Shown here: in pieces, positions 19,509-37,728 of the stretch
Position numbering within the stretch: position 1 is the stretch's first letter
Layout: every line of letters begins with the position of its first letter
NCBI RefSeq assembly: GCF_019649055.1
Contig: NW_026570281.1
Coordinates: forward strand, 682,001 to 746,000
DNA: 64,000 nucleotides
Direction: 5' to 3'
From: Paramacrobiotus metropolitanus
Lineage: Eukaryota > Tardigrada > Eutardigrada > Parachela > Macrobiotidae
Notes under the pieces: model-generated
Database searches by the model: none
What the model saw: only the letters and a program-made list of their open reading frames with translations
Told to the model about the DNA's origin: nothing
Translations under genes and position numbers: made by a program

Positions 19509-20665
19509 ATGTTGGTGTGTAACGTGTATGTGTCGCTTATGGGCATCCTGGCGGTTGCTGTCCAGTCCCAGGGCAAACCGGCCCCGGCCAAACCCACCAC
19601 CACCACCAGTCCCGTCCCCAAAGCCCTTCGCGCGAAGATGGCGCAGTGTATCGGTACGTACGTTTAAAATTATGTAGTCATTTCAAGTTGTCTTAATGGC
19701 TGTTGTAATTACGGTAGTTTCCAGGAACTCGAATACACTTTCATACATACGGCGCGGGTCATTTGCACGCTATAGCTTGACCGTGATTACAAGTGCAACG
19801 CTTCGACGATATGTACACGACTACACGTAATAAATCTCAACACAGTCCTTTTTATTCACATTTACTGATACGTAGTAGTATTATTACGTACTTCTCTTTG
19901 ATATCTTCTTATAATGGCGGTTATATTACATACCGGGACCTGTATTAATTACTTTACATTACGTTATTTATTTGCAATAAATACGGTTATCAAAGATTAA
20001 TTACTGTGCTCACTCGTAATTAACTCAGCTAAGGCCCATAAAATTTATATTACGAGTATGTTTAACAACAGTGTCATATAATATTTTTAAAAAAGTTTCC
20101 GTCGTAGTAGGTATGTTATAGTTCTTTAGATTTCTTTCTCTCGTTTCGACATTTTCGTTATTCCATCCTGTTAAAACGTCTTTAGCCGCCAAGTCGATTA
20201 ATCCAGCTTGAATGCCGAGGAACCAATAGGTTAAACTTGCTAATAAGCGAGACCGTAATTTCTACCATGGCTGAACCGAAAAATGTAAAATTTGATCGGA
20301 AAATGTAACATTTGACGCCATAACTGGCCCATAAGATTAAATTACTGTCTTCGATATAGAAGTATCCGCTTAATTATTTTGCCTTTGTAGTGGAGTGCGC
20401 CCAATGTCAAGACTTGATCGGGTCGCGCTTTGACCACCGGCTGTGCAGCAAAGAGTGTCTGGAGCGCAAGGGCCTCAACGCGCCGGACTGCACGAACCCG
20501 GCGGCGATCAGGCGCTACCTCATAGCCACCGCCCCGGGGGTCCACGACACCCTCACCGCCGGCGACAGCGGCTCGTCAAACGCCGGTCAACGCCGTCTGA
20601 TCATCGGCAGCGGCAGTTCTGCCTCATCGGCCAACATACGTCTGATCAACAGCAAATCCGGATAG
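19509..20665 (+). CDS. Eclosion-hormone-like neuropeptide precursor 1
   Basis: Two exons, 19509-19653 and 20391-20665, phase-1 intron, about 139 aa. A signal peptide (MLVCNVYVSLMGILAVAVQS) is followed by a Pro/Thr/Lys-rich linker and then the hormone core: C-x3-CAQC, C-x12-C, C-x3-C and C-x10-C. These six-cysteine spacings are the same as in insect eclosion hormone (C-x3-C-x2-C-x12-C-x3-C-x10-C). The ECAQC, KG and PDC residues are also as in the family, whose disulfides are 1-5, 2-4 and 3-6. Insect eclosion hormone triggers ecdysis behaviour through a receptor guanylyl cyclase. Unlike insect forms this precursor continues about 50 residues past the usual C-terminus; QRR and other basic pairs there could be processing sites. 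Confidence 0.88.
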
Positions 20666-22247
20666 TGACGCCAATGGGGCAGGAATTTGCACAGAAATGC
20701 ATCCGAATGACAGGAAAGATTACCGTCTAATATAGTGTGGGTGGCTACCGTGTGGTACACTCACTTTTTTCGCTTAGATAAGATCTGATCTGTTTGAAAT
20801 ATTGAAAACGCGTCGAGTATACTACAGTAGTACTTGCGACAGACTTGCGTAGGTATTATAAACCAGATCTGTGACTTCTTTAATTACCTTGCCCGTTGGT
20901 TTCAATAAGTGTGCATTTTGCTACATTTACTGATTTGATTATTTAATCAATCATGCTATTGCTTACTGCCAATTAAATAACTTATTGATATCCGATTCCA
21001 TCTGAACGCGTTAATACAACACCTCCAGTTCATATAAGCATAGTGAAATTATCCCACGAAGCTAACATTCCACAACAGATATGTGTAGCGCTCTACGTTC
21101 GTACTACAAATAATTATAATTCTACAATAAAATTAATGAAAAAATTCAAAAAAAGCACTCATGAATCCTACAAGAACTCATAATTATTATGACGTTTTCT
21201 CGTGAATTTCCCGAATCAATCCGCCCAGTTGTGTTCCAGTTGCTTCCCTTAAATTTTTTTCGCATGATTACAGTACAGTACTTTCGTTCTTATCGATTTA
21301 CGCTTTCAGACAGCGGGGTGCGGTATGAACCGTATGATAGTATCCATTGCGAGATAAAAACATTAGCAAAATTGGATTTCTTCATGGGCGCAGTTGAAAA
21401 ATTAATCCTCGTTGCCGATAGCTCACTGCTGACACAGTTGCGGCCGGGTAACCTTTGCAGTAACAGGCACGATTGTATTGTTGCTTGTGTTATTCATGAG
21501 GCGGGTGTACGGTGATAATGATGAATGGGCAATAAACAAGGGTAACAACGCACTTGTTTCAGGATATTGTGATTTGTAGCAGACCGTTCTCATGCATAAC
21601 GAAACCCTGGGCGCGCCGCGCGGTACGCTGCCACGCGAATACGGTCTACAACCTACTACTGATGATTAAAAACATTAAACTTTCTTCTTGTTGTTGAATC
21701 ACGCGCATATTTTCACAAGGAAAACATCAGAAAAACACCCGAAAAATCGTCGAAGGTTAAAAACTCATTCGGCCTTCTGGCGGCTTCCTCGCGCCACGCA
21801 CTCATGTACGTAGTTTGGCCCTGGCCCGTGTCGAAGCGTTTGTATTTAATTTGCTGCCATTTCAACCGCTATCTGGTTTTTGAAGCGACTGGTGTGCTCT
21901 GCGATGACTTAAAAGTTAAAACCTATATAGACTCAGCAGTAGGGTACTAGGGTGTCACTTGTCAGTTGTCATTGATGTCAAGTCGTCATCATGAATCATC
22001 ACATCTTGAGAGAGGCAGCAAACTGTGCACGTTGTTATGGTCCGCCATAGGTTTATTGCTTCCATTGTAACCATAAGTCACTGATAAGGGCTGCTCAGTT
22101 ACTGTATACATGGTCTTAAAATACGTTTCGTTGTATCTGCTGTTAATTTCTTCGCTGTTTCCATAAAATTGAACTTGAACTACGGTGACTACGGTCGCCT
22201 GCGACAAGTAACGGCGTGACAGTCTGCACAGACCAGAGCGCTAACGA
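20666..22247. other. Intergenic
   Basis: 3' flank of eclosion hormone 1 and 5' flank of the phospholipase D gene. Open frames at 21189-21515 (plus) and 21989-22207 (minus) lack supporting motifs. No TATA box stands out ahead of 22248. Confidence 0.45.
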
Positions 22248-25200
22248 ATGCCTCCGTATTGGCTGATGCGCAGCGACGAGATCGCTCCAGCCACGACCGA
22301 TGCTGACGCTGCGGCGCCCTTCATCATTGCCACCAATGAAGATGAGGACGCAGCATGTCCATGGCCACCGGCTGCGCATATCACCGAACGAGCGTCCGCT
22401 GCTACTCACCTTCCGCACACACGCAACGTTTCCCAGGAATCCGTGCGGGAACCCCCGTCACGCACCAGATCCAGTTTCGATCGACCTAATTACGCAAGTT
22501 ACAGGAAAAGCTCGTTGCTTAATTACATTTCCCACCCGCAAAGGTCAACAGCGGCTTTTCAACCGCCGAAGCGTTCCATAAAAGCGGCGGCCGATCGCGA
22601 TTTCTTTCATATCACACCACGCACAGTGTCTCAAGTTACTCCTGGAGTCGAGACAGAAAATGCTACAGCAAACGAGAAAAAGACAAGCCAATCGTCAGCA
22701 CCAATTACCCTAGCGAAGCGCTCTAGTACACCGAAAACGTCTTTAACCAAAGCGAATTTGAGTGTTTTGCGTAATACCAAGCAGGAGAAGGCAGTCTTGG
22801 ATATCCCCGAGATTAAAGTGCCCCCCAGTGTCGAATCGCTGGCGTTCTTACCTGAACCACTGAGAACGCAACGGGATGCAGCACCCGCACAAACCGGGGC
22901 GTGCCCTTTGCGTAAGCTTTCTCCAAAAGCCACCAGCGCATAGAAAGAACTTTTTCGTGATGAAAATTTTGGCAGAGTTTGCACACTAAAAAGTACAAAC
23001 AGTTGGCGAAATTAAACAATTCATCATAAATTATGGCTCATTAATTAATGTTAAAAAATTAGCGATTTGCTTGCTTTATTTTTTGGGTGACACTACAGCC
23101 ACCCCTAACACCCTCGCTTTTTATAGCTGCCCCATTTCCGCACCCCATTAATTATGGACACCCTTTTTTAATTTATTTATTTGTTTTAAGACACCTTGAT
23201 GTTTTATAGGCACCCTTTTTGCAGCTAATTTATGATACAGTGATTCTTATGTACGCGCTAGATCCGGTTACCATGATCGTTCAATTGCAGAAAGTGTCAT
23301 GGTACTTCTTTGTGTGGACTAAATCTTCAACAAACTTGGTTGGATCCGGCAGTCGGCCGAATCCAACCAGCTGTGGTTGGCCGTGGACGGTACTGTGTTT
23401 GTGAAGGCTGATGCTCAGGGCAAGCAGCTGGCAGATGTTGTCGAAAACGAAGAGGTGACCCAATGTCACAAGAGGTCGTTTAAAGGTTTTTTGTCAGTGA
23501 CAAAAACCTTTAAACGAGCTGACTAAACCGAAAAACTTTATCAAAATAACGACCGAGCAAGCGACTCTAATACGGTCGAGGTTGTCTGATGAATCAAACC
23601 AACCCATCGTTAGGTGGAACACTTAGCAGGCATTGTCGGGTGCAAATCATCGGTGAAATAACGTAATTATGTTCTAATAGAACTATGTGTTCTGATACTG
23701 CTATAAAAACCAACAACCGTGTGTTTTTATTTAATCAAAAGTAAAAAGTGTGCCTGTAAAGAACCAGGGTGAAAAGGGGTCTATAGTGATTCCCTTATTT
23801 TTTTCCTTTAGCATTCACAGCAACATTACCATACAGCTACGTGTACGTCAAAAAACGGCCACTTCCCGATCCGCGGTGTTTTATCTTCATTCCTGGTGAA
23901 GCGCTGGAAATCACCGTTCTGGATGCGTTTAGAACAGATCTACTGGGGCGCGTAACAGCAGCTTACACGTCAGTGGTGATTGCAAAAAAGCAAAAAATTC
24001 CAAAATATTTTACACGCCAAAATCTTTGCAGTTATGCGCTGAAGATCACGAACGGCCAGCATGAATGGTACCTGCGCAAATCTCTGCGTCAGTGGCGCCA
24101 ACTGCACGAAGCACTGAAAATCCTGCAAGACAGACTTTCATCCGATATCAACGAGTTGTTGCCGTAAGCGACAACAAACAGTTCAAAAGGTCATGACTCT
24201 GACCACTATTACATTATAGCGGCTTCGTCGCCAAGACATCTGGCCGAAGCAGCGTCGCCAGATTTGACGACATCCGAGAGCAATCCATCTCTACTGACCA
24301 ACTCCCAAAAATCATGGTAACGCACAGTTGATTTCTCAGTGTTTCAACCTAACCATTAGCTTTTATTATTCAGGAAAGCTTTTCCATGTATCTCCACTAT
24401 ATTGCACATAACGCGCTTTGCCGGTCTCATATTGCTGTGGTAAACCTGCGCTGGGAGAAAAAGCTGGTTCTCAAAGCAATAAATATTTTGTTACAGAAAA
24501 TGTTTTTGGAGGTGAGTCCATACTCACTGATCCGTGATCTGGGTCTTAAGATGAAAGAAGGCTACGTCATGTGGCGCATCTCCGATGTGCCGCCGCAGCC
24601 GTTCCCAGTTAGTAGCCTGTGCAGTTGGCTGGTGCAGGGTGTGGAGTGGATTGAAATGTAACAATTAATCTTGTTACTAAGATAACAGTTCCCGCTGTCC
24701 ATTTTGGCAATCTTTTAGTTGGCTAGTGGTCAAAGAAACTTGCGTCTTTCTCGTCAGTCCGTACACTTCGGAGATTGTACAGGTTTTACTAGCTGATCGG
24801 CACTTTTCCATCGCGGAAGGTTTAGTCGCCACCGGCGAGACGCATGGCTTATTTATCCACAATTCCAAAAGGTTACTGCAGCTGGCGGTTATTCGCTTCT
24901 GCAGCATTGTAAACAATTGTCTCGCCAGTTAGGTTGCTGGCTTTAAAATGCCACGATCAGACGCAACTGGAGGAGTTCGTGATGGAGATGACCTTTGTGC
25001 AGCACGCCGGCGCTAAAGCATACACGCAAAGCAATCTATGTGGAGCGTTTGCGCCCGTACGCCACACATGCTGGGCCAAATGGTAATTATTGTGCAATTA
25101 CCCACATTTACAGGGAAGCGGTTAAACGATTTTTTTAGTGCTTTTGTTGAACAGGCTGGTAGAAGGTAGCGTGTACTACGAAGCCGTTTTGGATACCTTG

Positions 25201-28200
25201 CTGAGAGCCAAAGAGGATGTGTTTATCAGCGATAGCTGGTATTGCACGAATTATTTGTCATTAATTTTATCTTTGCATCGCGTAAATTTTGTCCAAGGGG
25301 CAAACACACACCACGTTCATGGGACTGAATCGTTTTGCCTTTGTGAATTATTAATAGGCTTCATATCGAGTTGATGCTCGAACAATCAGATGGAGAAACG
25401 AAACACCGGTTGGATTATGTGCTGGCGGCCAAAGCTGCAGAAGGCGTGCAAATCTTCATTTTGCTCTGTTCACCCTGTTTGAACACACTGCCCGATGGTG
25501 CTGGCTTCAGCGGGTTGCGTCAGACCCTGGAAGAACTCTGTCCAACTGGACGAATCCAGGTACGAAGCGCTGGAAAAACAAGATGCGTGAGTTAGCGCAG
25601 CGCCAGTAAATAGTGCACACTAATATTGAGAAAGTTTGCTGTAGTTACAGTGGGCTCAGTTTCTTCTGCAAAAGGCAGTGCTGAAAAATTGTGTACTTAC
25701 TTTAAAAACTAAAACATTTTAATTTTTAATACTGCCGGTTTTTATCTTATACGCTAGCTGCGATTTGCTGCTTCACGCCATACTTCTAGTGCAGCAAACA
25801 AACTTTGTACTGTGTACCAGTAGTTTGTGCCAGTATGCCTTGGTTTTCGGAATCGCTTCACGTACCGAAATTCGCTATAAACAAGGGATGACCTTCTCCT
25901 TAATAAGGTTATCTTCACTGCACCGACCGACGACAGTCCGTGGACGCACAACGACAAATTCGTTGTTGTCGACCAATCCCGAGCCTTGTTGGGCAGCATA
26001 AGGTAAAACTGAATGTAATGCGCTTGTGTGAAAATGACAGGGTGTTAAACACTGACAGTATCTGCCGTGACGCATACGCGTTTTCGATAATTTTAGTTTG
26101 GCGTTTGATCAGTCGGACACACACGAGCACCGGTAAGTGGCACCGGACATTGGCTTCAATGGAAATGGTGTGTTCACAGGCTGTTTAGCTTAACAGAACC
26201 ACATCCGCCAGAAAAAGCCAACAAAGCGATGAAAGATTCCTTGGAGCTGGTTAGGCTCCCTTCCGCCCGGCGTGTGACCGATTTACAGGATCCCTTTATG
26301 CCTCGTCCCAGTAAGAAAATCAGCCAGGTACTTGGTGAGATGAGCGGGGGCATTATTTGACAAAATACGATATTATTATATGTACAATTCCTACTCCGCC
26401 GTTTTTTTCGCCTTTTTTGCCCAACATCTCCTCCCACACCTTTCGACAATTCTCTCTCCACGATAGCTTAAAAAACGCGTAAATTCGCATAGGGTGCCAC
26501 TAAGGTTTTTATTTGGCGCACTTTTCACTCCCGAAATTACGAAACTTTTTCGAATCAAATTTCGCCTATTGGCTGAATCAGAAAGTACTAACAGCGAATA
26601 GGCGGAATCTTTTATTATTGCGGAAAGAATCACTATGGCAACACACAGTACGTAATACCAACACATTTTTGCAAAGTGCTGTTACAGAAAAAACGATGGG
26701 TGGAAACAATTACAATCTTGCGAATCCGGCATGTGTACATGAATATCTTTGTATTAGCCAGTTCGAAACGAACAGCATTTACAAAAAGACAGCATCAGAA
26801 GATTATTTTCTTAAAAGTACGAAAATTCGGAAATACGCAAAAAAGTTCTTGCGGAATTTCCGCCTAGAAACATTAATTGGTTTAAATTATAGCTAAAAAA
26901 TAGGTTCAAACTAGCGGTCGTTGCGAACCACATAACTGCACGAGCGCGAGCGCCAATTCCACTGGGAAATGGTATTGGAATCGTGGAACTGGAATAGTGT
27001 GACGTACTCTTTTCATGGCTTCATACAAATTTTATGCTCTTGACGAAGGCTTATTTGCAGCACCATTGACCATTGCGGAAATAGTGGAAATACACAAATA
27101 GGGAAAAGCGAAATAGCGGAAATACAGGAATACGGAAAGGCGTGGCGTAGCACAGACTGATTCATAACAGTATATTATTATATTATTTTTCTTTCAAATT
27201 AAGTATTACTATTATTATTGGCTTAGTATGATTAGTAATTTTCGGAAACCTTTCCAAACTACCACCAACGTTGCCTAAGCATTAGCAGGAATTTTTGCCG
27301 GTCACAAATTGGGTAGGAATTTTCGCCGACCAGACAAAGGAGTAGGGATTTTTGCCGGTTAGCCAATGAGGAAGGAAATTTCGCCGCTTAAACAGAAGAT
27401 TAGGGATTTTCGTCGGTACATAGAGTGAAAAACTTTTTGCCGATCAGACAAAGAGGGAAGAATTTTCCCGGATAGGTAAAGATTAGGAATTCTCGCCGGT
27501 TAAACAGAGTGGAAGGAATTCTCGCCGATCAGACAAAAGGAGAAGAATTTTCGCCGGCTAGACAAAAGAACAGGGACTTTCGCCGGTTAGACCGTGAAGG
27601 GAATTACGTCGCTTTAACAGAAGATTAAGGATATTCGCCGGTAGGAGACAGAGAAAAATTTTTGCCGATCAGGCAAAGAGGGAAGCATTTTTGCTCGCCA
27701 GACAAAGGAATAGGGGATCTTTGCCGGTTAGCCAGTGGGGAAGGAAATTTCGCCGCTTGCACAGAAGACTATAAAATTTCGCCAGTTAAACAGAGTGGAA
27801 GAAATTTTTGCCGATCAGACAAAGGGGGAAGAAGTTTCGCCGGCCAGACAAAGGAAGAGGGATTTTGGCCGTTTGGCAAGTGGGAAAGGGAATTACGCTG
27901 CTTGAACAGAAGATTAGGGATTTTCGCCGGTAAGAAAAAAAATTTTGCCGAATAGACAAAAAAGAGAAGAAATTTCACCAGCCAGGTAAAAGAGAAGGAA
28001 TTTCGCCGGTTAGACAAAGAGGTAAAACTTTATAGTACACATAGTAGTAGTTCATTGTATTACAATAAAAGTTTTCAAAAATCAGTACTCCTGTTACAAT
28101 TATTACAATTATCTGAATTTTGTTTATTTTTCAAAAACCATAAATAAATTTAAATCCCTCTCAATTCATCTTCCATTTGGCGGATCTTTTTTTGGCAACT

Positions 28201-31200
28201 AAGACTTGAGTGCTATTGTATTCACTGAGTATAAGCAATCCAGATTTTGGTTTTGTTGAGCCTTTAAAGCAACATTTCATTCTGAATTTCTAAAATTCGA
28301 CGTTTGCAAACCGAGGCCGGAGGCCGAGGGTTGCATTGTATATACAAAGCTAACTCCTCCGTTTTTTTATCCAACATCTCCTCCTACACCATTCGACGCT
28401 AATTTTCGCACGATAGCTTAAAAAACGTCTAAAATCATGTAGTTTGTCTCAACGACTTTTGTTTTTCAATCTTTTCGACGTCCGATTTACGAAACGCGTT
28501 TGAAGCGAATATCGCTGATTGGCTTATCTTTAGAAATTAAAAAGGGGATTGGCGGAAAAGCGGAATTTCGAACGATAACCGCTGACTAACTTCATGCGTT
28601 GCACCAACACAGTAAATAATATGGGCCAGGAGCACTGATTTTGAAAGTATTGTGGAAACACAGAAATGCGGAAAGCCGTAACTTACAATTGTTAGAAGTT
28701 AGTACAAAAATAATAGTGTTACAAATGTTCCAGGCGGGAATTTCGGCATTCTGATGGTTTTGTAAAATAAAGTCAATTCGGCAAGAGAAACTTTAGCGTG
28801 CGAACACAGCAGCATTAAGTCATTGTTTCAGGCGGGAGTTTCGGCATTTTCATTTTAGGATGGATTTTCGCCGGTCATACAAAGGTGGAGGGATTTTCGC
28901 CGGTCATATGAAAGGGAAAGGATTTTCGCCGGTCAGACTGTGGGTAAAGGGATCTCGTCGTTTAGACAGAGGGTTAGGGATTTTCGCCGGACAGACAGAG
29001 GGGAAGGAATTTCCGCCAGTTAGACAGAGGAAAAGGGAATTTTGCCGGTGGGACAGAGTGTTAGGAATTTCGCCGGTCAGACAGAAGGGAAGGAACGTTT
29101 GCCGTTTAGACAGACGGTTCGGGATTTTTGCCGGACAGAAAGGGTGTTAGGGAACTTCACCGGTTAGGCAGAGGGGTACGGCTTTCGGCCGGTCAGAAAG
29201 AGTGTTAGGGATATTCGACAGTTAGAAAAAGGAAAAGGATTTTCGCCGGTAAGACAAAGAAGGAGGTATTCTCGCCGATTAGAAAGAGGGTTATTGATTC
29301 CCATTCGCGGGTGCGACACAGGGGTAGGAATTTTCGCCGGTTATAGCATTCAGTTTCAGTCGTTCAATTCCAAATTAATTTTAATAATATCGACTTACGG
29401 ACAGTTCGGTCGGTATACGGACATAAAACACGGTTTGAGTAAATGCTGCTTTTACTTCCATTTCCAGTTAGAAGCCAGCTTCACAAAAATAAAATAAAAT
29501 TTTTTCGGAACAAGAGACCATTAATGTTCAGTTTTTTTGCTATACGCGATGCGAAGTAGTTGATTTCAGGTAAATTGCTTTGACATTTTATGCACTGCAA
29601 TAATAGCAGTAGTTCATCCATCTGTATTACAATACTTGATATTTGTAGATCAGTAATCCCATATTAATTATAATATTGAAACGGTAATCAAAATTCAATC
29701 CTACTTTTTTCCCAACCGAGGCCGGAGGCCGAGGTTGGGCTTGTATAAAGATATAGAATACAGGTATAGCGGTTTGTTGTACTGCTATGCTGTATTGTCT
29801 GTATATCTGAATTAATTTGGTTCGTTTCATTCAGTGATTATAATTTTTCGGTGAACGCTCCGCATATACTTATATTTGTACCTTTATACCACCGTTGGCT
29901 CCTAATATCCCTTTTGCACACCTCTTTTGACTCAGCAAACCACCATAAAGTGTTTTAGGAAATGGCTATTGTTACACCCCCCGCATCCCCTTTTAACTAT
30001 TGTCACCCCCTTTTTTAGTAAAACAAACACCCTCTTTGACTATTGCCACTCTTTGGTAATTGGTCATTTCTTATAAGACATAGTTACTAGCTTGACCTTG
30101 CAGCCAACTTCAGTAAGATTGTAAACCACCGGAAAGGTACAAAAGGTGCCGGCGATCATGCGGAGAGATATTAGCGCGGAAAGAGGGGCAGCCGTTTGCT
30201 TATGACCCGGCGCTTCCTAAGTTAAAAGATGTTGCAGCGATGCTTTATGAAAGTTAAGGCTAAGAAACGCAGTAAACGAAAATGTTACAAAATCAAATTG
30301 CCGGAATCGTTCACTTATCCCTGATGTTCAAATTTAATTTAACGAACAATATATGTAAATGTTGGTGTGATGAAATTTCAGCCAACCAAGCCGAAACAGT
30401 CCCAACTCGGAGCGGGAACCGACGCGGACGCAGTTACTACTAACCCGCAGCAGAGCTTGTTGGCAACAAACAGTCAGGTTAGCGCAACGCCACAGGCAAT
30501 ATGCTCACTGCTCAGTCATAGCACTCGTATTATAACAAATGCAACTGCCGAAGCATGCCATTCTCTATGATGTGACTTTTTAAGGGAGAATCATGCCCAT
30601 ACCCGGTCAAAAACCGGTACGGTTGCTCTTTGAGTTTTCTTAGGCGTATTGAACACGGTCGTTACGTTTTAAGGGCAAGTTTAAACGCAGTGCGGATGTT
30701 GCCGCGATCCTCTATTCCTGTACCAGTCGTTGCTTCTCAAGAATCCGTGGATAAAGCCAGGAATTCATCGTGGAATGCGCAGGTAACCGGCATCGTTAGT
30801 CGTTACTACGACCGACGACCATGTATTACGTGCTGCATCCAATTGTTTGTGTGTAGAGTTTTCTGGACGGAACTCCTGTCCTCAAGAGTAGCCGAGCATC
30901 CGATGCCAGTTCGTGCACACCATGTGGCAGACTGCATCGTCCATGTATTAAGGTGGCATTATGCTTTCCAGAGTTGTCGGTGCGGCGTGCTGCACGCCAC
31001 GCCACGGGCATTTCCCTGATGGGTGATGTGGTTAAGGATTTGGCACGGCATTTCATTGAGCGATGGAATTACGTCAAGGTCATGGGTTATGAAATATTCT
31101 TATGTGCAGCTGTTACAAATCATTTCGGAAATTATGAAATAAACAAAGCATGATCATAGTTTAATATCTGCTGCAGATGAACAGGTTCATTCCTTGACAT

Positions 31201-34200
31201 TTTTTGTAACCCAAGCCTTTTAGAACCATCTGTATTATTAAATGCTTTAGAACAGGTTCTGTGTCAAAAATGGCTTAAACACTGGCCTCTTGTTCCTCTG
31301 TTTTGGTATTTAAAGTGTTTTTTTTATATTTCTTTTTTGTTACAGACCATAAATTTCAAAGAAAACTCAAAACGCCGGTTTTTGATCCCTAAAGCGAAGC
31401 ACAGCGAAATCAAGAGCGAGCAGATAGAAGAGGATAATTTTATTCAGTGCCGGGCACAGGTAATATTCATATTTCAGGATTTCTGATTTTGTTATTATGC
31501 TTGCCAAAAAATGCCGGTTAGGCTTTGCGAAGTGTGGGACAGTGGTCCGCTGGATACAACGCTCCCGAGGATTCCATACACCAAACCCTCATTCGGCTGA
31601 TTGCGCAATCGCAACATTTTATTTACATCGAGGTAAACGAAAAAGAAGGAGTTTCGTGTCAGCGTAAATAAACAAAAGTACGAAACTTCTATGTACCGTA
31701 TTTTCCCAGTCAGCAGTGTTAGTGGTTGCTAATTTTTCCTAAAGCCCTCGGATTCCGAGGTATTAAGTTTTCGTAAGAACTAAGGAAGCTTCCTCCAAGA
31801 GGCGGCTGCATTAGTTTCTTCTAAGGGCGGACCCTTGTAAAACAGCGACGGAGAGATACTTGTTTGATAAGATCCGGTAAACGCAAAAAATCTGTAGCGT
31901 TTATTAAGTGTACATTATACAGAGAACCTCGCGAGTAGTCACTGCAGACTATGCTAGAAGCAGTAATGAAACATTTCTGGGAAAATGTAGTCATACTCTG
32001 TCTAAGGCTGTTTTCATCCTTTAAGTACATGTCGTTGATGTAGACGGAATCCTTCGTTTCGCTCTCACCTGGCAATGGGGACACGTTTAATCTACTCAAT
32101 CACACGCTTGTTCAGCGCATCATAGCAGCTTACAAGTGCGACGCTAGCCAATAAAACCTTTCCGGCTGAAAGTATTCAAAGGTCATCGAGATCATGGTAT
32201 TATTGTGAACTAACAGGGCCCGAGCGACCTACCGCGTCTACGTCATTTTGCCGCTGCTGCCTCTCACAGAGGGGACACCAGCCGGGGGTCAGCTGAACGA
32301 TAGCGCAGTGCAGGCGCTCATGTCCTGGACGTATCGGTCGATTTCCCGCGGGGTCCACTCACTGATCGTACAACTCAGCCAACACAGTACGTTTACAATC
32401 TAAGCCCCATTGAAAAAAACGAGATCACGTACTCTTAAGTGCTTGCCAATTAGAGTGCATGCACATCGCTGCGATGCAGATCTCATTACTCAACAAAAAG
32501 AAACGCTACAGAATTTTGGGAATAGCATTATTACATTAATTGCTATAGCAGTGCTAGCACATTAATAGTGCAGCGTGCGTGCAAGTCACCATTGCGTTGC
32601 TGCCCTAATTTACAGTGCCACTTCCGGTCATCCCGCAGTATATTGGTTTCTTCGGATTACGCCAGTACGAAACCGCTGTCGGTCATCCGGTATTTATTTA
32701 ATAAATTCATCTTTATTCCGTTGTAAGTTGACACTGCATCTCAGACACTGACTATGAGCCGCCTTTTGTCTTTAACTGCAGATGACGGAAATGATCCATA
32801 ATCATTCGGAGGTTGTCATCGTCGACGATCGGATCGCGTTGCTGGGATCGGCCAGTCTTTGGTTTGTCGCGTGCAAATAATATATATAGATATAAATACG
32901 TATTATACGAGGTATGAGCTATGAGGTATACCTTTCTGCGCTTGCCTCTACAAGGTACGGAGATATCGTACCGTGCAAGTCCCTCGCGAACAAGATCGCA
33001 TCGGTTAAAGGAAATTAGAGCATGGCCGTGGTTGAGCCATTAGGCAGACTGCGGGCGTACGGCAAGGGCTAAGCGAGTAACCGTAATAACTGCGTCGCCA
33101 GCAAGGGAAGAATGAACAATATATACGTACGGCAGTATGCATTTTTTATATGCAATTGCTAATTGCTATTATTATAATACTGTCTGCTGTAGCAGTAATA
33201 TACTTCATAGATAGATGCTATCTGTAAATCTCAGTATATCATACGAATGCCGTACTGCAATTTTATGATAACGTGATTCTTTTTCGGGAAGTGACTTGTA
33301 TTTGTAATTTCTGAATGCGTAAGTACTTTCCGAGCGTGCTCGCATACTGAACGTTGAATGATTTTATAAAGTGATCGGAGCCTACTAGGAGCGCGCAACA
33401 GCGAAGTGGCCTGTGTAATCGAAGGTGTGTGTAACAGTGTGTTTTCCAACATAACACAATTACAAGTAACCTAAGTTGGACTTTTACAGACGAAAATTTC
33501 ATCGGCAGTGTGTTGAATGGGCGACCGTGGCAGGCCGGGGCGTTTGCCACAGGTCTTCGATGGAGACTCATGGCGTAAGTTTCGTCATCGCAAGCGCCGT
33601 ACTCACAGCCCAGTAAATATAAGGTCACATTTCACTAATAATCACACGATCAGAAATAAATTATACCCTATATTAGTTAACCTATCTTTGGTAGCGAACA
33701 TCTGGGAATAATGGCACCTTCCACCGGCACGATGCATCCTACCGACAAAGAACTTGTCCGTGACCCCGTTGCCGATACTTTCTGGCGGGACATCTGGCAA
33801 AAAACGGCCAACCAAAACACTTCTATTTACGAACAGGTGATGAATAAAAAAACTCAGCTAACAGTAACACAAGTACTGAATAGCCGGCGCCCGGAAGTAA
33901 CCTCGTCTTCCTCGGAAGCACTCTCTTAAGACGGTTTTACTGACGCAATATACTTTGTACAAAGCGGTATTAATGGCAGTGATGCGGATGACGTTGGCAG
34001 GTGTTTGAGTGTGTGCCGTCGGAGGAAGTCAGCACTTTCGCGCAGTTGGAAGAGCGTCTGCAAGCGCCGGCAGGTAGCCTACCGCGGGAGATGGCGAGAG
34101 AGATGCTAGCCGCGATACGCGGACATTTGGTGACGTATCCGCACGGTTTTTTGAGGAATGAGACTTTAGGGGAAAGACCGTTCACTGCACACGGACCAAT

Positions 34201-34222
34201 GCCCACTGTTGCCTTAACATAA
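22248..34222 (+). CDS. Phospholipase D family protein (PX-PH type) with altered catalytic motifs
   Basis: Exons: 22248-22911, 23812-24163, 24220-24316, 24374-24439, 24497-24657, 24719-24871, 24933-25082, 25155-25238, 25358-25559, 25908-26002, 26097-26132, 26180-26327, 30382-30477, 30857-31078, 31346-31459, 31522-31632, 32044-32135, 32217-32386, 32616-32689, 32782-32854, 33490-33574, 33695-33836, 34001-34222. All phases agree, giving about 1202 aa. A novel Ser/Ala-rich N-terminus (1-220) precedes a PX domain (YVYVKKRPLP), a PH domain (WLVVKETCVFLVSP) and two phospholipase D halves matching animal PLD1/PLD2 in order (FISDSW; LAFDQSDTHEHR; RHFIERWNY; QHFIYIE; YRVYVILPLLP). Active enzymes turn phosphatidylcholine into phosphatidic acid using two HxKx4D motifs. 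Here the first is NDKFVVVD (His to Asn) and the second HSEVVIVD (Lys to Glu), so catalysis is probably lost. Exons 13, 14 and 20 are the least certain. Confidence 0.85.
23477..23516. repeat. Near-perfect hairpin in PLD intron 1
   Basis: CGTTTAAAGGTTTTTTGTC is followed after a 1-3 nt loop by GACAAAAACCTTTAAACG, with one T/A length difference. The stretch before it (about 23310-23470) reads as an open frame but matches nothing I recognise; it may be a gene fragment carried by a mobile element. Confidence 0.6.
26385..26650. repeat. Dispersed repeat module A, copy 1 (PLD intron 12)
   Basis: Contains ACTCC-CCGTTTTTTT, CCAACATCTCCTCC, ACACC-TTCGAC, CACGATAGCTTAAAAAACG and ATTGGCT in the same order as a second copy at 28345-28620. 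Diverged, non-coding. Confidence 0.65.
27287..28024. repeat. Minisatellite array 1 (about 28-nt unit)
   Basis: About 26 diverged units of the type GGGATTTTCGCCGGTTAGACA followed by a purine-rich AAGAGG tail. There is higher-order structure: a pair of distinctive units (GTTAGCCAATG-GGAAGG followed by CGCTT-ACAGAAGATTA) recurs near 27361, 27590, 27731 and 27876. Open frames across it reflect the unit, not coding. Confidence 0.85.
28345..28620. repeat. Dispersed repeat module A, copy 2
   Basis: Direct repeat of the module at 26385-26650, about 1.96 kb downstream and next to a GAGGCCGGAGGCC motif at about 28311. Confidence 0.65.
28856..29342. repeat. Minisatellite array 2
   Basis: About 16 units of the same GATTTTCGCCGGTCAGACA repeat as array 1 on the same strand. 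Together with module A it shows that a unit of module plus array has been duplicated within the intron. Confidence 0.85.
29712..29737. repeat. GAGGCC-type foldback, second copy
   Basis: ACCGAGGCCGGAGGCCGAGG framed by CCCAA and TTGGG. A sister copy lies at about 28309-28334. It probably marks an element or module boundary. Confidence 0.5.
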
Positions 34223-36153
34223 TAAATCAGTACCATTTTCGTATTTTTTTCATTTATTTATTGCGTACTAAATTAATCTTGATTGTTCGTGCATTTATCA
34301 TATTGTTAGTAATTAACATTATTATTATTAAATGGAACTACAAGAATTTCCAGCATTTTTAATGTTTCTAGTAATTTTACTCTGTCGCATTCCTTCATTT
34401 AGATAAAGATTTAACTGCTTTAACCTCAATGTCGGAAACTATAAGAAAATTATGTCCCATTTTTGAGCTTAAGTAGAGTAATTAATGCAGCTCGCACTTT
34501 TTATTATAGCCCGATAAATACACTGCGCACTGGTGTACTAGACTACTACGGTTTCTCTACTGTTAATCCGTCGTTGTGAATCAATAATACCTGGAAATGC
34601 TAACTCGGATTGTTGCATGTTAACGTTGGTGGACATTGTAATAACCCTAGGAAAGTAAACCAGTGCATTGACAAGCACAGTTGTGTGCTTTGATCAGCGG
34701 GATCTGTCCGAGCAGCGGGAATCTGCCGCCGCCCTTCCTCTTTCCCGCGCGCCTCGTAATCGCTATCCGTTGCACGTAACCGCTGCAGCACTTAGTACTT
34801 TTTACAATCACACCTCCCGCGCAGCAACAACCGTAAAACTTTCTCCATTGACAGCTGTTACAACGGTGCCACACGACAATGGCGATTAGGGAATTTGATC
34901 CGACAACCGGCAGCTGTACACTGTGCCACTTGTGACTGCTGCATTGTGCCATTGTGCCGGCACCCGGATGGGCACTGCGCGGTGATGACGTGCTACCTGC
35001 GCAGGGTGTGCGGTTGATAATCGGTCCCGGCTATCAAACGGCCGGTGAGTTGGTTTCACACCATTTCCGGACGGAAATGCACAGTCAGCAACACATTCTC
35101 CGGCTTGTAAAAACTGCTCCGGCTGGACCTCCCGCGACGCTTTACGCCTCTATTGATCCGGAGGTCTAGCTGCGTTTACCGGTACGGTTTTATGCGTTGT
35201 TGTGTCAACATGGTGTGGTCAGTGCAACACTCCAGTATTCATTGACCTTGTCACAACTGATCACCTATTTCGTACGCTGACAACTGCCAGAAAAACAGTG
35301 CCCTATTTAGCTGTTGTTACATAAATATAAATGCACGAAATTATTTCTATTATTTAATATCAAATACAAAATTCTTTACAATTTGTTGTCAAATCAGCCA
35401 GTCAGGACACTTGTTATAATCAGTGTACGTATACTGTACTTTATACTTTTTATTTCGAATCACAATAATCATTTGTATGGTATGAGTGGTAAGACTGTAT
35501 TGCTTGATATGTTTAGTTTCATCATTTTCCCTATTAAAACTTTACTTGATAAAACTAATACTTCCTTAGTTTTGCAGAAAACTGCAAAAAATTTCGCATG
35601 TTCTGTTTATTTCTGTAAATGCTAAAAGTGTGAAAAACTTGGAGTCGGTGCAAAACAAAGGTCGCGAAGCTAAATGTAAAATAACCACAGCCAGTCAAAA
35701 CGCCGTCGCTGCAAAAAATATTAGTCACGCAGAGCAAAATAAGAGGGATCAACTGATAAACAATTGGTGTCAGCCTGTCGGAAGTGGATGATACTGGGCC
35801 GATCCGTAATAATGAGGGCACCCGCCACCCAGTACGCGAGGGCTGCCGACGCCGTACTGTACCTGCCATCACGTCATCCATGTAAAAGCCCTTGTAATAT
35901 TGCGTATTTTATGGTTCAAAGGTAAAAATTCTATTATTACAACAGCTGTGCTGCAGTGACGTACGAATGTTTGGCAGCGAGAGAATCGATTACGGCGCTG
36001 CCGGTATTAAGCGTATTACATCCGCGGTTATATCTTATCGCTTAGCAAGGATGATTAGCCCCCATCGACGTACGGACAGTCCTCATTCGTCAGGATCCTG
36101 ACGTGCAACCGCCAGCCCGACCCGTCCTCCCTGATCCGTCGTCCAGAAAGGCT
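34223..36153. other. Intergenic between PLD and eclosion hormone 2
   Basis: AT-rich 3' flank of the PLD gene, then a more balanced segment at 34680-35170, then the promoter of eclosion hormone 2. Only the frame at 34954-35169 looks at all protein-like. Confidence 0.45.
34954..35169 (+). CDS. Possible orphan exon, uncertain
   Basis: A frame of about 71 codons ending in TAG with a balanced amino-acid composition (for example LIIGPGYQTAGELVSHHFRT). It has no in-frame ATG, no signal peptide and no family match I know, and no clear acceptor site. It could be the last exon of an unannotated gene or chance. I do not assign a function. Confidence 0.2.
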   Translation: MPAPGWALRGDDVLPAQGVRLIIGPGYQTAGELVSHHFRTEMHSQQHILRLVKTAPAGPPATLYASIDPEV

Positions 36154-36312: not shown

Positions 36313-37728
36313 ATGAAGTGGGACGATGTCCGCCACTGGGCAATACTCCTGGTGACCTTTAGCGTGGTATTCAGCCGGACTTCGGTGCAGGCGGCCCCGG
36401 CGGCGCCCAAGGAGATGATTGGCAACATATCCATTTGCATTGGTAGGATATTGCTTTCGTATTGCATTTTGGCATTTCTGTCGGATAGTAATAGTCTTCA
36501 ATGACTTTGCAGCGAATTGTGCACAGTGCCATGATATCATTGGGGATATTTTCGATCATCGACTATGCAGGTACACAAACAGTAACATACTCACCACAAT
36601 TTTTTATACGTTTTGTATTTATGCAGTATAATTATGTTTATTCCTTGCAAGTTTTGTGGATGCTTTCGTTACAGTTTCATCGTAATAAATACCTAATAAG
36701 AGTAATCAGATTGACAGATTGATGTTTTTATGCTGCTAAGATTTATATGCCCCACGTGTGTAAGCAATTATTACGTACAACAAAATAAAATTTATTATAA
36801 TTTATAACGATCTGCTGTAGCATGTAAAGTATGTATACTCAAGCTGATAAATCATTTATTTTGTATTTCATAAACATATGGTTAGGGCGCAGATTGTACA
36901 TCGTCAGACTAAATAATCGTTTTCTGGTCACTCCATGCATTTCCGTTTATGTGCTGCTTCCGTTGGAGTAAGGTTTTTGCTCATCGCATAAATCATTTGA
37001 CATTCACGGCCGCGTAACGATTACTTCCGTATTCAAATGGGAAAACATTTAAGCTAGCAAAAAGTATCTAGTCACGCGGCGATGATTCATGACCAAAGTA
37101 AATATTAGATTCTAAACGATAAACTAATAATGATATTTATGACAATATTAGTGATAAAAATGATAACAATTTTTAGAAAGTTAAATACTATTAATTCAAT
37201 TTATGCGGAAGGTTTATTTGCTTTAATAATTTAAACTGAATTGTAAGGTTAAGTATGGTGCTGCACCATTTGCTGCTAACTACGGTCTTGAAATGAATAG
37301 GTATTTCTAAAATGGGACGACTTATAGAAGTAATAGACATAAAAATTACTATTGTGGTGAATACTGTTATTTGCCTGTTATGTACGAGTACGCGAATACT
37401 GTTATTTGCCTCGTAGTCGATCATTTAAGAATGTAAACAAGTATGACACAGCCATCGCAGTGATTTTATGACTGATCGATGTGTAAAACACTTGCACTAC
37501 TTACAAATACGTTATAAATTGAGAACCTATTAGTCTTTCTAATACGGAAAAGCTACACGAATGTAATTGTGTACTGTAACTATAATGTAATTATTTATTT
37601 GGGTTTATTGTTGCAGCAAGGATTGCGTCCGAAGGAGAGGCACATTTATACCTGACTGCACTAGTCCAAGCGCAATAAAGGAGTACCTTTCGGTGGCACT
37701 CAAAAGCGCATTGTTAAACAGCAAATAA
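36313..37728 (+). CDS. Eclosion-hormone-like neuropeptide precursor 2
   Basis: Three exons: 36313-36442, 36513-36570 and 37617-37728, giving about 99 aa. The start at 36313 has a good context (AACAATGA); an in-frame ATG at 36289 would add eight residues. Signal peptide at about residues 8-26 (AILLVTFSVVF), then the hormone core ICIANCAQC, C-x12-C (DHRLC), CSKDC and C-x10-C (FIPDC), then SAIKEYL. All six cysteine spacings equal those of insect eclosion hormone and of precursor 1, with which it shares DHRLCSK. It stops soon after the core, as in insects. It has one more intron than precursor 1, inside the core at the CS codon. Expected role: a secreted peptide acting in moulting, on the receptor guanylyl cyclase if conserved. 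Confidence 0.9.

What the first reader, a model, noticed from the sequence alone, without database searches (positions are those of the whole stretch)
25908..32854. Phospholipase D with both HKD motifs disabled
The protein aligns over its length with PX-PH type animal PLD, yet the catalytic His of the first HxKx4D is Asn (NDKFVVVD at 25950-25973) and the Lys of the second is Glu (HSEVVIVD at 32803-32826). The Gly pair after motif 1 is GS. About 24 residues normally found after the second GSAN are missing. The frame is otherwise intact over 23 exons, which argues for selection as a pseudoenzyme, perhaps a lipid-binding or regulatory scaffold, and against a decaying pseudogene.
Basis: partly seen in the sequence, partly recalled or inferred. 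Interest (0 to 1): 0.8.

Follow-up and report, generated by a model that had tools for sequence, protein, structure and literature searches.

The report
Catalytically dead animal phospholipase D paralogue
A small animal, probably a tardigrade, carries an intact but heavily altered copy of the membrane enzyme phospholipase D that has lost key catalytic residues in both halves of its active site, beside two normal-looking copies elsewhere in the genome, so it probably works as a non-enzymatic regulator.

Summary
Partly confirmed. A PLD1/PLD2-like gene on the + strand (23 core exons, 23812-34222, 987 aa, no internal stop) has NDKFVVVD for HKD1 and HSEVVIVD for HKD2. By alignment with human PLD1, seven of eleven pocket residues differ (W381S, Y420C, H464N, D481S, D680A, K898E, N913S). 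The "24 missing residues" are not missing: exon 33372-33424 and the next one encode them. Searches of the same genome found two other PLD loci, both with two intact HKD motifs. The window gene lies outside that pair on a branch of 1.3 substitutions per site, yet shows no stop or frameshift; free drift along the whole branch would give about 69 stops. So it is a maintained pseudoenzyme rather than a decaying pseudogene. Its C-terminal half is kept better than its N-lobe. Most likely it is a membrane-recruited regulator or scaffold; that step, and the lack of activity, are inferred. PX and PH are weakly recognised. Expression and orthologues were not testable. New variant of a known kind: pseudo-PLDs of other architecture are known.

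The parts
22248..22911 (+). tentative first coding exon (about 221 aa), ATG to a GTAAGC donor whose phase fits the next exon
   Evidence: open frame and phase-compatible donor; no Pfam match at E up to 1
23812..24163 (+). exon 1 of the core model, N-terminal part of the PX-like region
   Evidence: weak PX match E 0.063 for a 160-aa piece
24220..24439 (+). core exons 2-3 (24220-24316, 24374-24439), rest of the PX-like region
   Evidence: GT-AG, phase continuous
24497..25082 (+). core exons 4-6 (24497-24618, 24719-24871, 24933-25082), PH-like region
   Evidence: 31% identity to the C2 paralogue over query 2-163, E 9.3e-18, a stretch that also covers the start of the catalytic region; no Pfam PH match
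25155..25559 (+). core exons 7-8 (25155-25238, 25358-25559), start of the catalytic N-lobe; W381 to S and Y420 to C here
25908..26002 (+). core exon 9 with altered HKD1, NDKFVVVD at 25950-25973
26097..26327 (+). core exons 10-11 (26097-26132, 26180-26327); exon 11 after its first residues rests on open frame and phase
30382..30477 (+). core exon 12, tentative loop exon after a 4,054-bp intron
   Evidence: open, phase-compatible, GT-AG; not recovered by the aligner
30857..31078 (+). core exon 13 (5' half tentative), ends with the ARHFIERWNYVK polybasic region
31346..32386 (+). core exons 14-17 (31346-31459, 31522-31632, 32044-32135, 32217-32386), core between the motifs
   Evidence: phmmer to human PLD1, E 9.9e-17, with a partial query
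32616..32689 (+). core exon 18
32782..32861 (+). core exon 19 with altered HKD2, HSEVVIVD at 32803-32826, and GSAS
33490..34222 (+). core exons 21-23 (33490-33574, 33695-33836, 34001-34222), C-terminal region and stop

Best explanation
The window holds a functional, protein-coding third PLD1/PLD2-type gene whose product keeps the homology of both PLD lobes but should be unable to carry out the two-histidine PLD reaction. It separated from the two active-looking PLDs of this animal before those two duplicated, lost the HKD1 histidine, the HKD2 lysine and further pocket residues, and was kept by selection. Most likely it works without catalysis: its membrane-binding surfaces (PX/PH-like N-terminus and the polybasic stretch) bring it to phosphoinositide membranes, where it scaffolds partners or competes with the active PLDs and their activators. 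Shown by computation: open gene, altered pocket, two complete paralogues, intact frame over a long branch. Inferred: loss of activity, membrane recruitment, regulatory role.
For: 23-exon core model, 987 aa, no internal stop, 22 introns GT-AG (I chose the junctions, but the aligner found most of the same exons on its own, with no frameshift). Both HKD motifs altered, plus W381S, Y420C, D481S, D680A, N913S (W381, Y420, R917, E926 and D680 of PLD1 are named in passages of PMC11653685). Two other loci, C2 and C100, have both HKD motifs, and three genome searches hit only these loci and the window gene: 4 of 4 PLDc matches on C2 and C100, 20 of 20 with the window protein, 22 of 22 with the C2 protein. 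Branch of 1.305 substitutions per site against 0.249 and 0.420 for C2 and C100 with no stop; about 69 are expected over 987 codons if the whole branch were neutral, and at most about 4% of it can have been neutral for a 5% chance of no stop. Codon positions 1, 2, 3 differ from C2 at 0.509, 0.415, 0.675. Columns invariant in the other four proteins are kept at 28 of 65 in the N-lobe against 69 of 92 in the two C-terminal stretches, Fisher p 6e-5. R695, R700 and K705 equivalents are kept and R691 is K (the numbers as PIP2 residues are recalled). Human PLD1 has lipase-independent scaffold roles (passages of PMC4323006).
Against: No transcript, protein or orthologue evidence. The pocket is not hit significantly harder than other invariant positions (6 of 10 against 65 of 163 lost, p 0.32), so general fast divergence explains much. 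H896, K466, R917 and E926 equivalents are kept, so a residual or different activity is not excluded. PX and PH are weak or unrecognised by Pfam, which weakens membrane recruitment. In the polybasic region position 708 is N; C2 and C100 also lack the basic residue there and C100 has Q at 691, so this argument is soft. The GKDYxN stretch was not found (pattern search of three forward frames), and only 5 of 16 invariants of that middle stretch are kept.
Confidence: 0.6

Rival explanations
1. The protein is a specific negative regulator of the active paralogues: it pairs with them or occupies their activators (Arf/Rho GTPases, PIP2) and so damps phosphatidic acid production, rather than scaffolding unrelated partners.
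For: Two active-looking paralogues coexist; the C-terminal half is much better kept than the N-lobe.
Against: No partner data; no GTPase site was tested.
Confidence: 0.2
2. It is an enzyme of altered chemistry: the kept H896, E926, R917 and K466 equivalents support a slow, one-histidine or different reaction.
For: Those four residues are kept; Pfam PLDc still matches the protein at E 4.6e-12, two stretches.
Against: HKD1 His, HKD2 Lys and both +17 residues (D481, N913) are replaced, and the substrate residues W381 and Y420 too.
Confidence: 0.1
3. A recently dead gene that has not yet gathered stops.
For: Fast divergence and pocket loss; no expression evidence.
Against: It lies outside the C2/C100 pair, which are themselves only 62% identical, and has no stop in 987 codons; the neutral part of its branch is at most about 4% at P = 0.05.
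Confidence: 0.07
4. Assembly or gene-model error produced the altered motifs.
For: Exons 12, part of 11 and part of 13 are not supported by homology.
Against: Both motif exons were found by the aligner with GT-AG junctions, and seven separate pocket changes would be needed; no unsplit alternative HxKx4D with PLD context.
Confidence: 0.03

Closest known systems
Human PLD1 and PLD2 (PX-PH phospholipases D; PDB 6u8z, 6ohm)
   Same: Homology over both catalytic lobes; 37.3% and 39.5% identity over 458 aligned columns; E 2.1e-101 and 2.6e-98 in the PDB sequence search
   Different: HKD1 His, HKD2 Lys and further pocket residues replaced; PX and PH weakly recognised
C2 and C100 PLDs of the same genome (L006, L005)
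   Same: Ten of the 22 core intron positions lie within 3 columns and in the same phase as introns of C2 (7 exactly), and ten for C100 (8 exactly); 37.1% and 35.6% identity
   Different: Both HKD motifs intact there; they are 62% identical to each other and group apart from the window gene
FAM83 family (pseudo-PLD anchors for CK1; PMC6008594, passages read)
   Same: Pseudo-HKD proteins thought to work by binding partners
   Different: FAM83 has one pseudo-HKD in a DUF1669 domain and is described as vertebrate-only; this protein has homology to both lobes of PLD1/PLD2
PLD5 (PMC6008594, passage: catalytically inactive, lacks the HKD motifs)
   Same: Inactive member of the PLD superfamily
   Different: PLD5 belongs to the PLD3/PLD4-like branch (recalled), not to the PX-PH branch
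Phytophthora TM-PLD and PLD-likes (PMC3056787, passages)
   Same: PLD-family proteins with a modified HKD motif
   Different: One HKD motif is modified there, and the PXPH-PLD of that organism keeps both

Membership tests
PX-PH phospholipase D (PLD1/PLD2 type), as a lineage | catalytic-region homology to PLD1/PLD2 over both lobes | tested here: met
   (E 2.1e-101)
PX-PH phospholipase D (PLD1/PLD2 type), as a lineage | N-terminal PX domain | tested here: inconclusive
   Pfam PX E 0.063 for a piece, profile 3-83 of 84, below cut-off; not reported for the whole model at E up to 0.1
PX-PH phospholipase D (PLD1/PLD2 type), as a lineage | PH domain | tested here: inconclusive
   aligns with the C2 paralogue; Pfam PH not found here, sub-threshold in C2
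Active phospholipase D | two HxKx4D motifs | tested here: not met
   NDKFVVVD and HSEVVIVD
Active phospholipase D | GSxN after motif 2, and W381, Y/F420, R917, E926 of PLD1 | tested here: not met
   GSAS, S and C; R and E are kept
Maintained pseudoenzyme | intact coding frame over long divergence | tested here: met
Maintained pseudoenzyme | expression, and lack of activity | not testable with these tools
   no transcripts or assays on hand
Maintained pseudoenzyme | same losses conserved in orthologues | not testable with these tools
   states that this genome has no relatives in the held set
FAM83 / DUF1669 | DUF1669 domain | tested here: not met
   Pfam reports PLDc and PLDc_2 only, at E up to 0.1

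The most novel reading that the evidence does not exclude
An old tardigrade (or wider ecdysozoan) lineage of PX-PH pseudo-PLDs exists that arose before the active PLDs of this animal duplicated, and controls phosphatidic acid signalling by direct binding to the active enzymes: a non-catalytic subunit for a family thought of as enzymes.
Probability: 0.15. Interest if true: 0.65.

Novelty: new variant of a known kind. Interest (0 to 1): 0.42.

Why it matters
Lipase-independent roles of PLD1 have been argued from catalytically inactive mutants made in the laboratory (PMC4323006, passages). A natural gene that has kept the PLD body and lost the chemistry would let those roles be studied on their own. 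If the animal is a tardigrade, it would do so in a group known for surviving desiccation (recalled), where membrane lipid signalling may matter.

Tried and rejected
Missing residues after the second GSAx: rejected, exon 33372-33424 found. Alternative exon that restores a motif: two HxKx4D strings were found in 22000-34600 over both strands (24112 +, with a stop inside it; 24553 -); neither has PLD context; a motif split by an intron would be missed. GKDYxN exon: looked for by pattern in the three forward frames of about 26100-31080; three hits, none with PLD context. Pfam on three long upstream frames: no match at E up to 1. Tree position: placing the window gene with C2 or with C100 is rejected (AU p 0.005 each); beside PLD1 or PLD2 it is not (AU p 0.09 and 0.14); the program warned that 5,000 replicates are few for the AU test; no outgroup was used, so the root is unknown. 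Enrichment of losses in the pocket: not significant. dN/dS was not computed, since third positions look near saturation. Shared intron positions have no chance control, and the N-terminal parts of the C2 and C100 models are uncertain. The PLDc search of the genome did not itself list the window gene, so other strongly altered PLDs could escape it. At frameshift penalty 22 the aligner used one 4-base frameshift in the C100 paralogue near its PH-like region; at 80 it used none, so that region of C100 is uncertain. Structure prediction was not run: the tool's text admits letters that the DNA gives unchanged, and I took a spliced protein not to qualify. PDB chain 7v53, listed as Phospholipase D, appeared and was not used.
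Full report
Where it is. The window is bases 682001-746000 of contig C61 of a 169.8-Mb, 533-contig genome. The genome is probably that of the tardigrade Paramacrobiotus metropolitanus: a paper on that species mentions 3.79-3.84 Mb on its scaffold 2 and a longest scaffold of 4.48 Mb (passages of PMC11191345), and C2 here is 3.852 Mb. This is an inference, not a test.

The gene. Reading all forward frames, a spliced aligner that I wrote and manual joining give 23 core exons from 23812 to 34222 on the + strand, 987 residues and one terminal stop; the 22 introns are GT-AG, though I chose the junctions with that in mind. A further 5' exon, 22248-22911, fits in phase and would make 1,209 residues, but it has no Pfam match. 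Exon 12, most of 11 and the first half of 13 rest on open frame and phase only; in that stretch the aligner's own choices were other short pieces. The PX-like exons were also joined by eye. The aligner could have used frameshifts and used none at penalties 22, 30 and 80; its score of 739 compares with 49 for the reverse complement and 44, 46 and 65 for three other stretches of the window.

NDKFVVVD (25950-25973) and HSEVVIVD (32803-32826) are there and align with the two HKD motifs. The stretch after the second GSAx is not missing: exons 33372-33424 and 33490-33574 encode it. No unsplit alternative motif with PLD context lies in 22000-34600.

How far the pocket is lost. Human PLD1 numbering was anchored at H464 in the N-half (recalled) and R917 in the C-half; W381, Y420, E926 and D680 then fall on the residues that PMC11653685 names (passages; fit). 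K466, D481, K898, H896 and N913 as catalytic positions follow from the HKD and GSxN rules and are recalled. Changed here: W381S, Y420C, H464N, D481S, D680A, K898E, N913S, seven of eleven. Kept: K466, H896, R917, E926. The Asp of each HKD motif, described as distal from the site in human PLDs, is kept too. Loss of a catalytic His alone is expected to abolish the reaction as described in PMC6008594 and PMC11653685 (passages).

Other PLDs. Pfam PLDc over the genome gives four matches, two each on C100 and C2, all above the cut-off, and none in the window gene. The window protein (an early 628-aa model) gives 20 matches: 15 in its own gene, 3 on C2, 2 on C100. The C2 protein (680 of 818 aa) gives 22: 12 on C2, 9 on C100, 1 in the window gene. 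Withheld stretches and weak matches could hide more. C2 and C100 both read HHEK...D and HSK...D.

Divergence. Over 458 ungapped columns the window protein is 37.1% identical to C2, 35.6% to C100, 37.3% to PLD1 and 39.5% to PLD2, while C2-C100 is 62.0% and PLD1-PLD2 67.5%. It keeps 102 of 173 columns invariant in the other four; in the same test C2, C100, PLD1 and PLD2 keep 102 of 112, 117, 114 and 111. The five-sequence LG+G tree joins C2 with C100 (bootstrap 100) and PLD1 with PLD2 (87), with a window branch of 1.305 against 0.249, 0.420, 0.206 and 0.317. Placing the window gene with C2 or with C100 is rejected; placing it beside PLD1 or PLD2 is not. Long-branch effects are possible. Ten of its 22 core introns lie within three columns and in the same phase as introns of C2 (7 exactly), ten as those of C100 (8 exactly), and C2 and C100 share eleven. 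It is therefore an intron-bearing copy and not a processed one; no chance control was run.

Selection. Nonsense changes are 5.3% of missense changes for this coding sequence at kappa 2. A branch of 1.305 run neutrally over 987 codons would bring about 69 stops, and about 32 over the 458 aligned codons alone; none is seen. For a 5% chance of no stop the neutral part of the branch is at most 0.057 per site, about 4% of it. This takes the branch length of the aligned part for the whole core and ignores indels. Because the model was chosen as an open frame, exons without homology add little; the aligned part alone gives P 1.5e-14. Very recent loss is not excluded.

What is kept. Of columns invariant in the other four, the N-lobe with HKD1 keeps 28 of 65, the loop and GKDY/PRMPW stretch 5 of 16, the ARHF to YIE stretch 33 of 42 and the HKD2 stretch 36 of 50; N-lobe against the last two, Fisher p 6e-5. 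In the polybasic region (PMC11653685 links a polybasic motif to PIP2; residue numbers are recalled) the window has K, R, R, K, N at 691, 695, 700, 705, 708; C2 has R, R, R, K, D and C100 has Q, R, K, K, F. The pocket is not lost significantly faster than other invariants (6 of 10 against 65 of 163, p 0.32).

Reading. A maintained, catalytically dead paralogue is the best account. That it is recruited to membranes and regulates or scaffolds is inference, drawn from the kept surfaces, the coexistence of two active-looking paralogues and the lipase-independent roles of human PLD1 (PMC4323006, passages).

Literature. Searches for phospholipase D with pseudoenzyme (4 of 4 papers listed), tardigrade (7 of 7), inactive HKD and PX terms (24 of 24), PLD5 (4 of 4), scaffold terms (12 of 84) and PX-PH or pseudo-PLD terms (20 of 47) showed, in listings and in passages of PMC6008594, PMC11653685, PMC4323006, PMC7371163 and PMC3056787, no PX-PH PLD with both HKDs altered. 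Phytophthora TM-PLD and PLD-likes have one modified HKD (PMC3056787). The library lacks most subscription papers, and the listings were cut.

Noticed in passing
window 20391-20665 and about 36313-36570, both +: Two eclosion-hormone-like coding stretches flank the PLD gene (Pfam PF04736, E 6.3e-10 and 2.1e-07; the second was joined from two exons by hand).
   Followed up: partly
window 27287-27871 and 28862-29290: Arrays of a roughly 29-bp minisatellite (unit like GGATTTTCGCCGGTCAGACAGAGGGGAAG) inside the 4,054-bp intron of the PLD gene.
   Followed up: no
L005 and L006: The two active-looking PLDs are 62% identical in the catalytic part, share eleven intron positions and differ at 0.646 of third positions, so their duplication is old.
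   Followed up: partly
window 34190-34222: The protein ends in ...PMPTVALT; human PLD1 and PLD2 also end in threonine, which passages of PMC11653685 link to a hydrophobic lid.
   Followed up: no
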